The notes beneath the pieces are model-generated. The model did not search any database. It worked only from the letters and a program-made list of their open reading frames with translations, and was not told the DNA's origin. Source: Fusobacteriaceae bacterium (GTDB taxonomy: Bacteria > Fusobacteriota > Fusobacteriia > Fusobacteriales > Fusobacteriaceae). From it: a stretch of 64,000 bases of DNA. This document shows, piece by piece, positions 11,278 through 47,039 of the stretch (positions are counted from its first letter, which is position 1; every line of letters starts with the position of its first letter). A program made the translations under genes and the position numbers. The stretch lies in assembly GCA_031272775.1 (NCBI GenBank), contig JAISTB010000039.1, forward strand, positions 1-64,000, written 5' to 3'.

Positions 11278-12168
11278 ATGCACAAAATTTCCATCCGATT
11301 TTTTGACGATAAAGAAGTCCGTGCCATTTGGGATGATGAAGGCGCCCGGTGGTGGTTTTCTGTTATTGATATTGTGGGCGTATTGGGTCAAAGCGCAAAT
11401 CCGCAGAACTACTGGTATGTCCTTAAAAATCGCTTGAAAAAAGCCAGGAGTGAAGTCCTTACAAATTGTAAGGGATTCAAACTCACAGCTCATGACGGGA
11501 AACTGCGAATGACCGACTGTCTGACAAATGAAGGCGTTATTGCCCTGGCCAAAGAATTCCCAGGCAAAAAGGCAAATCGCTTTATTGATTGGTTCACGTA
11601 CAGTGACGATACAATAGACGGTCAGAGCAAGACAAAGGCCTACACGCTTTTCAACAGTTCCCTGCTCGATACCATTGAAATCGGTACTGTCAAAGGTTTG
11701 CAGCAGATTCACGGCTACCTGTTCGGGGGACTCTATGATTTCGCCGGACAAATCAGAACCCTCAATATCTCCAAAGGCGGCTTTCAATTCGCCATGGCGC
11801 GTTTTCTGCCGGAGACGCTGCGAACCATTGAACGGATGCCGGAAAACACTTTTGAGGAGATCGCCGACAAGTATGTCGAGATGAATGTCGCCCACCCGTT
11901 CATGGAGGGCAACGGCAGAAGCGCCCGCATTTGGCTTGACCTGATGCTGAAGAAAAACCTGAAGCTTTGCGTCGACTGGAGCCGGATCCATAAGAAAGAC
12001 TACCTTTCCGCCATGGAAAAAAGCGTCACAAATGCTTCCCGGATAAAAGCGTTGATGCGCGACGCCCTGACCGATAAGATTAACGACCGCGAGGTCTTCA
12101 TGAAAGGCGTAGATTATTCCTATTATTATGAGCAGGAAGATGAGATTACAGAGGATGACGGGGCGTGA
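11278..12168 (+). CDS. BRO-N / Fic domain fusion protein (putative AMP-transferase)
   Basis: 296 residues. Residues 1-105 form a BRO-N domain, known from phage antirepressors ([20 protein letters not shown], then SVIDIVGVL). Residues 125-260 form a Fic domain with the active-site motif [12 protein letters not shown] at 206-217, matching HxFx[D/E]GNGRxxR fully, so it should transfer AMP or another nucleotide group from NTP to a target hydroxyl. I see no clear inhibitory [S/T]xxxE[G/N] motif within the chain. The BRO-N part suggests DNA binding or a phage origin. It has its own consensus promoter, and its 3' end overlaps the convergent reverse transcriptase gene by 43 bp. Confidence 0.85.
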
Positions 12169-13382
12169 AGAAATTCTTCGATTCCCCCTTCCTTGAATCT
12201 GTGCCACTCATGCACCAGACTCCGGTATCCCAGTTCCTTCAGCGTTCCGTACCGGATCGCGTAATTCTTCTTGCAATGCCGCCCAGTCTCGAAATAACGC
12301 AGATATTGTTGCAAATATTGATCCATCTCCCGGAGGCCTTTGTCCGTGGTCAGAAGCGGAAAGAACCAGCGAGACCAGGTGAGCTCGTCGGGATCTCCTC
12401 CTTCGAAGAATTTTCGGTTGAAGGTCCGGATCATGACGGCAATGGCTTTTTCGGGCGGAAGGCTCTTTTTTTGTTGCCAGCGGACCAGGGCATGGGCTTT
12501 TCGCCTGATTTTTCCTTTGAGTTTTTCCCGGGTCGCGGCGGAAAGATCAATATTTTCGTGATCCCAGGAGACACCCAGGAATTCTCTTGACTCGCCGGGG
12601 CGATAAGTTTTTTCTTTTCGCGGGTTGACCCTAAGCCCGTGTCGGGTCAGAATTTCGTGGATGACATCCTTATGGTCGAGGAGTTCTTCCTCCGTCGGCG
12701 CGAAGAACATCAAATCATCGGAATATCGCGCGTAGAGTATCTTTCTTTCCGTAAAATACGCGTCCAGTTCCCGCAGATACAGATTGGCCAAAAAGGGGGC
12801 GACGGGAATTCCCGCCATGACGCCCCGTTGTTCCGCGACGGGCTTTCCTTTCCAGAGGACGTGGGCTTGCGTCAACAATCCCGCTATAAAGTTGTAAAGC
12901 TGCGGGTCGTCTCCGGTTACATCCCCTAAAATCGGGAGCAGCTGCGGGACCGGAATGCAGTTGAAATAATCGTGGATATCTGACTTGTAACACCAGAAAG
13001 CGCCGGGGTCATCCCGCCGGGTCAGCATATGGATCGCCCGATGCGCGCCGTATCCGGCCCGGAAGGAATAACAGCCCTCGGGTTGCCGGTGGTCATAGCG
13101 GTAGAGGAGCGTCGCAAGGAGCTTCAAAACCGGCGTTTCCGCATCCGAATAGCAGTAAACCACGCGTTTTTTGTCGGAGCCCAGCTTATTCAGGAGTTTT
13201 TTTTCGGCTAAGCCAAAAGAGCCCCCGTTCCGGATCGTTTCTACCACAGGGCCCCAGGTTTTTTCTTGGATATATTGTGCAAGCACGTCGAGCTCTTTTT
13301 CGGGCAGACGTCTTTTTTCCTTTTTGGCCGAAAGAAATTCCAGCCATCGGGTCTCGTCGGCCAGTTCGTCAAGGAGGCTCAT
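12126..13382 (-). CDS. Stand-alone reverse transcriptase of unassigned class
   Basis: 418 residues from ATG 13382, which has CCGGAG eight bases upstream. Palm motifs are complete: [25 protein letters not shown] (motif A aspartate), [17 protein letters not shown], the catalytic [11 protein letters not shown] (YSDD where most families have YADD), LRVNPRKEK and EFLGVSW. About 130 residues follow the palm as a thumb-like region ending [11 protein letters not shown]; there is no HNH endonuclease or maturase-specific motif, so this is not an ordinary group II intron protein. It lacks the [IVL]GxxxSQ signature of diversity-generating retroelements. The frame stays open upstream to ATG 13607, but that stretch codes for an unlikely arginine-rich sequence and folds as RNA. 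Retron or defence-type (unknown-group) reverse transcriptase is the best guess. Confidence 0.85.
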
Positions 13383-13600
13383 GATTTTCTCCGGGTGTGT
13401 TTTGTACCGTTCGGGGGAGCGTAGCCTCCCCGCTCCCGTAGAACGATACGAAACTTTTATCAAAAGGGAAATTGCTTTGAAGGCAGCAATGCTGACACAA
13501 GGCTGAACGCCCTCCGGTTGTCCGCAAAACCTTTGGAAAGAGAGCGCTTTGCCCCGTCGCGGACGCGCGCGTACCGCGCGCATTCCCTTTTTGCCTGATG
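13383..13600 (-). ncRNA. Structured RNA region directly upstream of the reverse transcriptase
   Basis: Read on the minus strand. A long-range stem joins CAAAAAGGGAA (13593-13583) to TTCCCTTTTG (13470-13461). Inside it lie CGCGCG-GTACG-CGCGCG (13580-13564) and GTCCGC/GCGGAC (13564-13559 with 13525-13520), which encloses a further GG-AAAG/CTTTCC stem. Nearer the gene, GTATCGTTC (13449-13441) pairs with GAACGGTAC (13412-13404), continuing into GGGAGCG/CGCTCCC (13437-13431 with 13421-13415). Retrons and several defence reverse transcriptases have a template RNA in this position. Whether it is transcribed separately and copied is not known; no promoter was found within it. Confidence 0.4.
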
Positions 13601-13607
13601 AATACAT

Positions 13608-33588: not shown

Positions 33589-35007
33589 TCAGTTTTCGGG
33601 AAAATGGATCACTTTCCCGGGATTCAGCAGGTTCTTTTCGTCAAAGATTTTTTTCACGCCCTGAAACAATTTATAGAGGGAACGACCTACGAAATCTTCG
33701 AGGTAGTCTATTCTTCCGATTCCTATTCCATGCTCTCCGGATAATTGCCCGCCCAATTCCTTGGACTTGGCGTAAAGTTCTTTGAGGCAGTTTTTCGTAT
33801 TGTAATGCCATTCCTCATCCGTTTGGTTTTTCCGCAGCATTTCCGTATGGATATTGCCGTCTCCCGCGTGACCTACCGTAACAATGCGGATATTGTAGCG
33901 CCGCCCGATTTCCTTGGCCGCCCGGATATAGTTGGCAATTTCAGCCCGCGGCACGACCACGTCGCATTCTTCCTGGGAATCGCTTTCGGCTTTCAAGCCT
34001 TCCAGCACCGCCGCCCGTACGGACCAGACCGATTGAATCCGCTCCGGCGTATCGGCGATTTTCACATCCAGCGCGCCGTTTTGCAGGCAGGTATCCGCGC
34101 ACTGGTTGCAGGCGTTTTCCAATTCTTCCCTGCTCGCCGCGTCATACATGAGAATGAGGTAAGCGTTTCCGCTGTTGTCGGGAAAGGGTTTGTTGAGGTG
34201 GGTCCCGATCATATCCAGCACTTCCTGCTCAATGAATTCCACGGCCGTCGGCATGAAATTCAGCTGCAAGATCTTCGGTACGGACTCGATACAGGTAATC
34301 AAGTCCGCGTAAGGAACCACGAGGGTTCGTGTGAAGGCGGGCAAGGGCAGCAGGCGCAACGTGACTTTCGTACAGATGCACAACGTTCCTTCGGAGCCGA
34401 TGATCAGATCTTTCAGATCATATCCCGTCGTATTTTTTACGACATTGGAAGAAAACTGGACGATTTCGCCGTCAGGCAACACGCCTTCAATGCTTCGTAC
34501 ATAATCCCGGGTAACGCCGTAACGCACGGCGCGCATTCCGCCTGCGTTGGTAATCACCGTACCGCCGATGGAGGCTGTCCGCTCCCCGGGATCGGGCGGA
34601 TAAAACAATCCGACTGCCGAGGCTTCCTTGGAAATGTCGCAGAGCAGCGCCCCCGCTTCGGCTGAGATCGTCATATTGGCCCGGTCAACCGGATCAATCC
34701 GGTTCATCCGGAGCATGGAAATCATGATGCCGCCGCTGCTGCAGATGGCCCCGCCGGCGAGACCGGTGCCGCCGCCTCTCACCACGACCGGGATGTTTTC
34801 TTTCCAGGCGTATTTCATGATGGCGGATACTTCTTCTTTGGTCAGAACTTCCACGAGGGCTTCCGGCTGAAAACTGCCGTATTCCGGCATTTCATCATGC
34901 CAGTAATCCTTCTTTATGGTCTCTCCGACGTAAACCCGTCCGGGATCCGTGATTTTTCTGAGATGCTCGACTCCCGCGGGCGTCAACTTTTTATACCGGT
35001 TTTCCAT
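33589..35007 (-). CDS. FAD-linked 2-hydroxyacid dehydrogenase (GlcD/LctD family)
   Basis: 472 residues. FAD-binding type 4 (PCMH) domain with VVVRGGGTGLAGGA, TNAGGMRAVRYG and KNTTGYDLKDLI, then the FAD-oxidase C domain with VTVGHAGDGNIH and SGEHGIGIGR. The family oxidises lactate, glycolate or 2-hydroxyglutarate. Its ATG overlaps the stop of etfA (TGATG), so this is the dehydrogenase of an EtfAB-linked complex, as in the lactate dehydrogenase LctBCD of acetogens. The substrate cannot be fixed from sequence alone; lactate is my first choice. Confidence 0.88.
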   Translation of the reverse strand: MENRYKKLTPAGVEHLRKITDPGRVYVGETIKKDYWHDEMPEYGSFQPEALVEVLTKEEVSAIMKYAWKENIPVVVRGGGTGLAGGAICSSGGIMISMLRMNRIDPVDRANMTISAEAGALLCDISKEASAVGLFYPPDPGERTASIGGTVITNAGGMRAVRYGVTRDYVRSIEGVLPDGEIVQFSSNVVKNTTGYDLKDLIIGSEGTLCICTKVTLRLLPLPAFTRTLVVPYADLITCIESVPKILQLNFMPTAVEFIEQEVLDMIGTHLNKPFPDNSGNAYLILMYDAASREELENACNQCADTCLQNGALDVKIADTPERIQSVWSVRAAVLEGLKAESDSQEECDVVVPRAEIANYIRAAKEIGRRYNIRIVTVGHAGDGNIHTEMLRKNQTDEEWHYNTKNCLKELYAKSKELGGQLSGEHGIGIGRIDYLEDFVGRSLYKLFQGVKKIFDEKNLLNPGKVIHFPEN

Positions 35008-36026
35008 CAGATGACCGCCTCCTGTTTTTCTTCCATGATCTGCAGCATTGCGGGAATTACTTTATACAAATCGTCGACGATATAATAATGGGCGATATTG
35101 AAGATCAGCGCGTCGGGATCGGAATTGATGGCGACGATGCACTCGGCGTCCCGCATGCAGGATGTGAACTGGATGGCGCCCGAGACGCCGCAGGTAATGA
35201 TCAAGCGCGGTTTCACCGTTCTCCCCGACAGACCGATCTGGCAGTCGGCGGAGCCTATGCCCTCTTCGACCATGGGGCGCGTATAGGCAATCCTTCCGCC
35301 CAATTTTTCCGCCAATTCCCGGACCAGGCGCAAACCTTTCTCATCTTTTACTCCCCGTCCCGCAACCACAAGAATTTCCTCTTCCTCGATGGATTTGGCG
35401 GGCGGGATCGGCGCCGTATGGAGGATTTCTATCCGGGACCGAAGCGCTTCCGCGGGAAGCTCACAGCGGATGAGGCGCCCACGGACGGAGCCTTCCATTT
35501 TCGCGCGATCCATCACCTTGTACCGGATCGTCGCAAACTGGGGACGACATTGGGAAATCAGGATTTTTGCCATGATGTTTCCCCCAAACGCCGGGCGGAT
35601 CTGGACAAGTTCTCCGTTTTCCTTGATATCCAGCGCCGTACAATCGGCGGTTAATCCGGTACGGAATCTCGTGGCCAGACGCGGCGCCAGCGAACGTCCC
35701 AGGGAGGTCGCTCCGATCAAAACGACAGAGGGTCTCGTTTTCGCGATGCAATCGCAGATCGCGTTGGCATAGATATCCGCGCGAAAATCCCCGAGGGCTT
35801 CCTCTTCGTAGATATAGACGTTCTTTACGCCGTAAGCGAGTAGTTTTTCCGCCTTTCTCGCGGTCCCGGGTCCTCCCGCCGCCACGACGTGCACCCGGTA
35901 GGAGGCTTTGGCGCCCAGCTTTTTCGCTTCGCCGATGAGTTCCAGCGTGACCGGGTGAAGGCACTCTTTTCCACATTGGGCAACGATCAGAATATCCTGC
36001 CATCCGGTCGTTTTTTTAATTTCCAT
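35007..36026 (-). CDS. etfA: Electron transfer flavoprotein alpha subunit
   Basis: 339 residues from ATG 36026 (GGGGGAG upstream). N-terminal ETF domain with ILIVAQCGKECLHPVTLELI; C-terminal FAD domain with VVAGRGVKDEKGLRLV, YTRPMVEEG and the signature YIVDDLYKVIP at the end. It lacks the N-terminal ferredoxin domain found in the LctC subunit of electron-bifurcating lactate dehydrogenase. It overlaps etfB by 11 bp and glcD by three. Confidence 0.92.
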   Translation of the reverse strand: MEIKKTTGWQDILIVAQCGKECLHPVTLELIGEAKKLGAKASYRVHVVAAGGPGTARKAEKLLAYGVKNVYIYEEEALGDFRADIYANAICDCIAKTRPSVVLIGATSLGRSLAPRLATRFRTGLTADCTALDIKENGELVQIRPAFGGNIMAKILISQCRPQFATIRYKVMDRAKMEGSVRGRLIRCELPAEALRSRIEILHTAPIPPAKSIEEEEILVVAGRGVKDEKGLRLVRELAEKLGGRIAYTRPMVEEGIGSADCQIGLSGRTVKPRLIITCGVSGAIQFTSCMRDAECIVAINSDPDALIFNIAHYYIVDDLYKVIPAMLQIMEEKQEAVI

Positions 36027-36834
36027 TTTTTTCTCCCCCTTCTCTGATATACTTTTCCTGCGTGAGTATCTGTAACAACGTCGCGGCTTTTTCCTCGGCG
36101 CTTGCCCCTCCAATGCGGATTTTTGTCGCCCGGCCCGTCGGCGGAAACATCTTGATCACTTTTGTTGGCGATCCTTTGGCGCCGTAATGGCTAGGGTCCT
36201 TGTCGGGCAGTTCTTTGCAGGAAATCTTCCGGACATTCTTTTCCCCGGCTTCTTTCACTTTTTTATAGGAAGGCAGACGGGGGACGTTGATATCCTTCTC
36301 TACGGTAATGAGGCAGGGATATTCCATCCTGGCGATCTGGGAGACTCCGCCGACGTCCTGCCGCGTCTCGATGCCCTTTTCATCGACTTTTTGGATTTCT
36401 TTGATCCAAGCCACATGGGGCAAACCCATTTGCTCGGCTATGGCCGGTCCGATTTGAGCCGTGTCCCCGTCTGTGGTTTGTTTGCCGCAAATGATAAGCG
36501 AGACGTCGCCCAAAAGGGTGATGCCTTGAGCCAGAGTATGGCTTGTGGCAAGTACGTCAGAACCTGAGAATTTGGGATCCGTCATGATGACGGCCTCGTC
36601 CGCCCCCATCAGGAAAGCGTCCCGCATGGCTTCTTCCGCCTGAGGCGGTCCCATGGTCAATACGGTGACGGTCGCCCCCAGCGTTTCCTTTATTTTCAAA
36701 GCGGCTTCCAGAGCGAACAAATCATAGGGGTTCGTCTTGTTATCCCCGCCGCCGCGGATCAGGGTCCCCTTCTTTTCGTCAATTTTGATCTGACTGCCGG
36801 CGGGCACCTGTTTGATACAAACTACGATTTTCAT
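36016..36834 (-). CDS. etfB: Electron transfer flavoprotein beta subunit
   Basis: 272 residues from ATG 36834 with GGGAGGAAG upstream; the long frame to 37077 is non-coding by composition. MKIVVCIKQVPAGSQIKID at the start, NPYDLFALEAALKIKE, and the ETF-beta signature region CGKQTTDGDTAQIGPAIAEQ. It forms the FAD/AMP-binding half of ETF and passes electrons from the dehydrogenase. The upstream 36835-37080 holds no gene; a weak -10-like box near 36865 is the only promoter hint. Confidence 0.92.
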   Translation of the reverse strand: MKIVVCIKQVPAGSQIKIDEKKGTLIRGGGDNKTNPYDLFALEAALKIKETLGATVTVLTMGPPQAEEAMRDAFLMGADEAVIMTDPKFSGSDVLATSHTLAQGITLLGDVSLIICGKQTTDGDTAQIGPAIAEQMGLPHVAWIKEIQKVDEKGIETRQDVGGVSQIARMEYPCLITVEKDINVPRLPSYKKVKEAGEKNVRKISCKELPDKDPSHYGAKGSPTKVIKMFPPTGRATKIRIGGASAEEKAATLLQILTQEKYIREGGEKNGN

Positions 36835-46787: not shown

Positions 46788-46816
46788 TTGACTTTATAAC
46801 ACTTATGGGGTAAAAT
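46788..46816 (+). promoter_or_regulatory. Promoter of a candidate small RNA
   Basis: TTGACT (46788-46793), a 17-bp spacer and TAAAAT (46811-46816). No open reading frame with a ribosome site follows before the terminator at 46927-46956. Confidence 0.65.
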
Positions 46817-46822
46817 GCTATT

Positions 46823-46956
46823 GAGACTAAAAGTAATATAGATTTCTGTAACCCCCAGAATCTATGTAAGTCTTCGTTTTTTAACACTCCCCCGTGTTAT
46901 AAAAAGTTGATCTAGGATTAGATCATAAAAGAGGATGCGCAAGCGTCCTCTTTTCT
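46823..46956 (+). ncRNA. Candidate trans-acting small RNA with two C-rich loops
   Basis: About 134 nt from the predicted start site to the terminator T run. Stem 1 joins AGACT/AGTCT and ATAGATTtCTG/CAGAATCTAT (46838-46848 with 46856-46865) and presents the loop TAACCCC. Stem 2, AACAC/GTGTT (46883-46887 with 46894-46898), presents TCCCCC. The 3' end is a terminator, GAGGATGC-GCAA-GCGTCCTC (46931-46950), flanked by A4 and T4. Unpaired C-rich loops are the hallmark of RNAs that block Shine-Dalgarno sites (for example RsaE and RNAIII of staphylococci). No known RNA family is recognised. The 6S RNA layout (one long closed rod) does not fit. Confidence 0.6.
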
Positions 46957-47039
46957 TTGGGAAATTTTCCCAAAAACCCCTTTTTATTGCCGGAAAAATG
47001 TGCTATAATGAATCAGTAAAAGATATTTGACGGAGGACT

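What the first reader, a model, noticed from the sequence alone, without database searches (positions are those of the whole stretch)
46788..46956. Orphan small RNA with two C-rich hairpin loops, a likely ribosome-site blocker
Seen: promoter TTGACT-17-TAAAAT, no reading frame, two hairpins with loops TAACCCC and TCCCCC, and a GCAA-loop terminator. Genes in this window use GGAGG or GGGGG ribosome sites, which such loops can pair with. Known: staphylococcal RNAs with UCCCC loops repress many mRNAs this way. Inference: this is a global post-transcriptional regulator.
Basis: partly seen in the sequence, partly recalled or inferred. Interest (0 to 1): 0.65.

Follow-up and report, generated by a model that had tools for sequence, protein, structure and literature searches.

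The report
Conserved C-loop small RNA of Fusobacteriaceae
This stretch encodes a real, apparently uncatalogued small RNA family found across several relatives of Fusobacterium; its C-rich loops look suited to stick to the ribosome-landing sites of messenger RNAs, as known small RNAs of other bacteria do, but no transcript or target has been shown.

Summary
TTGACT-17-TAAAAT, two hairpins with loops UAACCCC and UCCCCC, and a GCAA-loop terminator lie at the stated place; the transcript would be about 135 nt (46823 to about 46957). A third hairpin (46909-46924) was missed. It is not an orphan: the same RNA occurs at 39 places in 19 of 98 Fusobacteriota genomes, all in four genera of Fusobacteriaceae, including Cetobacterium with up to five copies per genome. 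Copies keep the start GA(G/A)AC(C/T) and a promoter with 17-nt spacing. Hairpin 1 shows compensatory pair changes. Hairpin 2 is letter-for-letter invariant, except in one species that has lost it. No reading frame is conserved and no Rfam family matches. Hosts lack Hfq; those tested lack ProQ and CsrA.

Most likely it is an Hfq-independent trans-acting sRNA whose C-rich loops pair with G-rich ribosome-binding sites. It works like LhrC, UCCC-motif staphylococcal RNAs and fusobacterial FoxI/FoxJ, without shown homology to any. The target side is inferred: GGGGGA start sites are common and somewhat more enriched in carrier genomes, but a reversed-loop control pairs equally well, and no target is shown. 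"Global regulator" is plausible, not demonstrated.

The parts
46788..46816 (+). Sigma-70-type promoter TTGACT-17-TAAAAT
   Evidence: Sequence; same layout in the other copies
46823..46957 (+). Predicted sRNA transcript, about 135 nt, starting at or near GAGACU
   Evidence: Conserved start GA(G/A)AC(C/T) 5-7 nt after the -10 box; fold z -5.75; transcript itself not shown
46823..46874 (+). Hairpin 1 with outer helix GAGACU/AGUCUU; loop UAACCCC at 46849-46855
   Evidence: Folds; compensatory changes in three pairs
46875..46881 (+). U-rich spacer between hairpins 1 and 2
   Evidence: U-rich in all copies that keep hairpin 2
46882..46899 (+). Hairpin 2 UAACAC-UCCCCC-GUGUUA, loop at 46888-46893
   Evidence: Invariant in 28 of 29 distinct rows, deleted in L062
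46909..46924 (+). Hairpin 3 GAUCUA-GGAU-UAGAUC, seen only in the window's genus
   Evidence: Present in the three genomes of the genus, with a U-A to C-G pair change in G001; absent from other copies
46927..46958 (+). Intrinsic terminator, GCAA loop, U-rich tail
   Evidence: Fold; a terminator-like hairpin with T-run follows the core in the other copies, with different sequence

Best explanation
A free-standing, trans-acting small regulatory RNA of about 135 nt, made from its own sigma-70-type promoter and ended by an intrinsic terminator, that works without Hfq. Two hairpins present C-runs in their loops; these make first contact with G-rich ribosome-binding sites (GGGGGA, GGGG, GGAG) of several mRNAs and block translation. 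Shown here: gene layout, structure, selection on the RNA, its family and distribution, and absence of the known chaperones in hosts. Inferred: transcription, contact through the loops, repression, several targets. In Cetobacterium the copies, with the same seeds under different promoter spacers and upstream sequences, would act as sibling sRNAs.
For: Conserved unit in four genera; promoter, start and terminator kept while flanks diverge; compensatory changes in hairpin 1 (10 cells against 1.7 in shuffles); C-run of at least five kept in loop 1 of every copy and in loop 2 of every copy that has hairpin 2; no shared frame; no Hfq above cut-off in 61 family genomes, no ProQ or CsrA in eight carriers; G-rich start sites are common in the hosts and somewhat more enriched in carriers (medians 4.3 against 3.4 over the reversed-pattern control, p 0.0009, not corrected for relatedness); F. 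nucleatum FoxI and FoxJ use cytosine stretches as seeds (PMC11005410) and Listeria LhrC uses CUCCC/UCCC motifs against Shine-Dalgarno sites (PMC4132741).
Against: No transcript data. Reversed loops pair equally well with start regions. No target conserved between genera. GGGGGA start sites also occur in genomes without the RNA. The invariance of the hairpin 2 stem is more than loop pairing alone needs.
Confidence: 0.7

Rival explanations
1. Protein-binding RNA: the invariant hairpin 2 and the U-rich spacer are the site of an unknown RNA-binding protein, which the RNA titrates (as CsrB-type RNAs titrate CsrA) or needs as a matchmaker.
For: Hairpin 2 keeps stem letters as well as loop letters in 28 of 29 distinct rows while hairpin 1 varies; hosts lack Hfq and, where tested, ProQ and CsrA, so an unknown partner is conceivable.
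Against: One species lost hairpin 2 and kept hairpin 1 (L062); there is only one copy of the element per RNA, unlike typical titrating RNAs; no candidate protein. The matchmaker version is compatible with the best explanation.
Confidence: 0.15
2. A narrow regulator with one or a few targets (for example a neighbouring or amino-acid/peptide transport gene) rather than a global one.
For: In the three genomes of the window's genus the gene follows an AbgT-family transporter gene; two Cetobacterium plasmid copies follow gltS and precede an ABC substrate-binding protein, another lies near an aminopeptidase P gene.
Against: Neighbours differ between copies (LrgB, OmpK, hypothetical proteins); trans-acting sRNAs need not act on neighbours; AbgT start region AGGAGGUUAUC has no GGGGG run.
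Confidence: 0.1
3. Not a regulatory RNA: a small peptide gene, cis-acting leader or dispersed repeat element.
For: Some copies have chance frames of 25-43 codons; several copies per Cetobacterium genome, two on plasmids near transposase genes.
Against: No frame shared by the copies, 1-2 nt indels in loop and spacer; no conserved gene downstream at a fixed distance and a terminator closes the unit; no Rfam family; no exact match to the hairpin 2 pattern in viral contigs, none similar in phages; copies differ in promoter spacer and terminator rather than being copied units.
Confidence: 0.05

Closest known systems
FoxJ and FoxI sRNAs of Fusobacterium nucleatum (PMC11005410)
   Same: Same bacterial family or order, Hfq/ProQ-free host, cytosine stretch as seed; in FoxJ it lies in a hairpin loop
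   Different: FoxI/FoxJ are sigma-E dependent, FoxJ sits upstream of ylmH; here sigma-70-type promoters and other neighbours, two C-loops, several copies in Cetobacterium.
LhrC1-5 of Listeria monocytogenes (PMC4132741)
   Same: About 111-114 nt, multi-copy, several redundant CUCCC/UCCC motifs in loops and a single-stranded stretch, blocks a Shine-Dalgarno site, Hfq dispensable for lapB
   Different: No Rfam match to any family here; different phylum, LhrC is LisR dependent, U-rich spacer here carries no C motif
csRNAs of Streptococcus (PMC3091779)
   Same: Several similar copies, two stem-loops typical, complementary to Shine-Dalgarno sequences, hosts without Hfq
   Different: In csRNAs the complementary stretch lies in the unpaired region between stem-loops, and CiaR controls them; here the C-runs are in loops
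Staphylococcal UCCC-motif RNAs (RNAIII, RsaE, SprD, as cited in PMC4132741)
   Same: C-rich motif pairing with ribosome sites
   Different: No Rfam match; other architecture and phylum

Membership tests
C-rich-seed trans-acting sRNAs (functional class, not a homology family) | Free-standing gene with own promoter and terminator, no conserved frame | tested here: met
C-rich-seed trans-acting sRNAs (functional class, not a homology family) | C-run exposed in loop or single strand and conserved | tested here: met
C-rich-seed trans-acting sRNAs (functional class, not a homology family) | Specific complementarity to start regions of target mRNAs | tested here: inconclusive
   Complementary sites abound but reversed loops pair equally well; no conserved target; weak enrichment in carriers
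C-rich-seed trans-acting sRNAs (functional class, not a homology family) | Transcript exists and represses a target through the C-run | not testable with these tools
   Needs RNA and mutants
LhrC, RsaE and other Rfam families | Match to the Rfam covariance model at gathering score | tested here: not met
   Only RT-5, elsewhere in the window; local search to E 10 gives nothing near a cut-off
FoxI/FoxJ | Sigma-E-dependent promoter | tested here: inconclusive
   Promoter boxes here fit sigma-70 consensus; sigma-E motif not available for comparison
FoxI/FoxJ | Sequence homology; location of foxJ between der and ylmH | not tested
   FoxI/FoxJ sequences not in the held text; neighbours seen in the window and in the copies listed are other genes

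The most novel reading that the evidence does not exclude
Hairpin 2, invariant in loop and stem over four genera while the rest changes, is the recognition element of an unknown RNA-binding protein that serves sRNAs in bacteria without Hfq, ProQ and CsrA, and the C-loop of hairpin 1 is the mRNA seed. The family would then be a handle to find a fusobacterial sRNA chaperone.
Probability: 0.15. Interest if true: 0.72.

Novelty: new member of a known kind. Interest (0 to 1): 0.46.

Why it matters
sRNA work in Fusobacteriota rests on F. nucleatum, which lacks Hfq and ProQ. This family extends it to Cetobacterium (multi-copy, culturable) and to uncultured relatives, with the same kind of C-rich seed. 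It would be a candidate new Rfam family, a test case for sRNA action without known chaperones, and its one-species loss of hairpin 2 is a natural experiment on which half matters.

Tried and rejected
Reading frame on either strand: chance frames only, not shared. Rfam: no match. Plasmid control RNA: in two C. somerae strains three large plasmids each carry one copy, but beside unrelated genes, and other copies lie on the main contig or in genomes of other genera. Phage or mobile origin: no exact pattern match in viral contigs, nothing similar in phages. Weak Spiroplasma plasmid matches (E 0.06) taken as chance. A common operator: none seen by eye beyond the promoter boxes. Targets: 49 GGGGGAGU start sites in five genomes gave no orthologous target between genera. 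etfA in the window has the strongest loop 2 pairing (AAGGGGGAG, -14.9 kcal/mol); two more etfA paralogues of this genome carry GGGGGAG, the near relative G001 keeps the site, but etfA relatives in Cetobacterium and in genus g13 have GGAG without the G-run; found after the fact, kept as a lead only.

Full report
What is there. Window 46788-46816 holds TTGACT-17-TAAAAT, and 46823 to about 46957 a highly structured stretch that ends in an intrinsic terminator with a GCAA loop. It folds at -42.5 kcal/mol against a shuffled mean of -22.4 (z -5.75), and without its terminator at -18.3 against -7.2 (z -4.11). The 5' end GAGACU closes hairpin 1 by pairing with AGUCUU, and a third hairpin lies at 46909-46924.

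It is a family. A DNA search in 100 relatives found nearly the whole unit in the two other genomes of the genus (88% and 86% identity) and the core in other genera. A covariance model from 18 copies found 39 places in 19 of 61 Fusobacteriaceae genomes and none in the other Fusobacteriota searched, 98 genomes in all. Carriers are genus g1 (the window's; public records of the two others are titled Fusobacteriaceae bacterium, isolates Pq454_bin26 and Md513_bin107; that these are termite-gut metagenomes is my own recollection), g4 and g11, whose matching public records are named Cetobacterium, and three large genomes of g13, by size perhaps the F. varium/ulcerans group (a guess, not tested). Cetobacterium carries up to five copies per genome; in two C. 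somerae strains three large plasmids each have one.

Why it is an RNA under selection. In the 33 collected copies a promoter with 17-nt spacing stands 5-7 nt before GA(G/A)AC(C/T), while spacer letters diverge (the script misplaced L003 and L004, which I read by eye). In hairpin 1, ten cells have changes on both sides that keep the pair, against 1.7 in shuffles. Of all cells 98.5% are paired, against 32-49% in slid structures, but that structure came from the same alignment, so this percentage leans its way; the double changes are the better evidence, and they come from few independent events. Hairpin 2 never varies and so says nothing by covariation, but AACACUCCCCCGUGUU is kept in 28 of 29 distinct rows. 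In G042 (L062) hairpin 2 is gone and a terminator follows hairpin 1 directly. In the window's genus hairpin 3 and the terminator also change in pairs. No frame is shared, and no Rfam family matches.

How it likely works. None of 61 family genomes has Hfq above the curated cut-off, and eight carriers lack CsrA and ProQ, so the known chaperones are not available. C-rich motifs are proven seeds for blocking a ribosome site in Listeria LhrC, which also has redundant motifs and several copies and does not need Hfq on lapB (PMC4132741). Cytosine stretches are the seeds, likely or shown, of FoxJ and FoxI in F. nucleatum (PMC11005410). The streptococcal csRNAs are a further parallel (PMC3091779). I take the same mode here: loop contact with G-rich start regions, translation blocked. 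These steps are inferred.

What limits it. In the window 7 of 64 start regions have GGGGG and 20 have GGAGG, but reversed loops pair as well as the true ones, so composition alone explains the pairing. GGGGGA before ATG is 4.5-fold over the reversed-pattern control in pooled carriers and 2.9-fold in non-carriers (medians 4.3 and 3.4, p 0.0009, not corrected for relatedness): a general habit of the family, perhaps stronger in carriers. GGGGGAGU makes up 7.3% of such sites in carriers, 6.0% in non-carriers and 9.8% in g4, suggestive only. No orthologous target came out of 49 such sites in five genomes. Three etfA paralogues of this genome have GGGGGAG sites, a lead found after the fact.

Verdict. 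A genuine, apparently uncatalogued sRNA family; the class of mechanism is known, the targets are not. The paper search found no report of it in Cetobacterium, in a library that lacks many subscription papers, among them, as far as I could find, the primary F. nucleatum sRNA catalogue.

Noticed in passing
12126-13607 (-), with 13468-13568 (-): A reverse transcriptase close to the defence-associated family RT_UG26 (PADLOC, E 3e-152) with an RT-5 RNA (Rfam RF03026, 60.8 bits) at its 5' side, overlapping the longest open frame; the true start is probably downstream of the RNA.
   Followed up: partly
35007-36113 (-), G000:C14 (L174) and G000:C9 (L189): Three etfA paralogues of this genome have GGGGGAG ribosome sites, whereas etfA relatives in Cetobacterium and g13 carriers have GGAG without the G-run; a possible genus-specific target set.
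   Followed up: partly
L062 (G042:C4:92737-92810): Natural deletion of hairpin 2 in one Cetobacterium-group genome; promoter, hairpin 1 and a terminator remain.
   Followed up: partly
L050, L018, L016, L005-L007: In Cetobacterium-group genomes and in g13 the copy near LrgB (or, in g13, a DJ-1-like and a dehydrogenase-like gene) shares an upstream small protein without Pfam match (motif EEQQQ, VDAHQ), which points to one ancestral locus; a STAS-like DUF4325 gene precedes it in Cetobacterium.
   Followed up: partly
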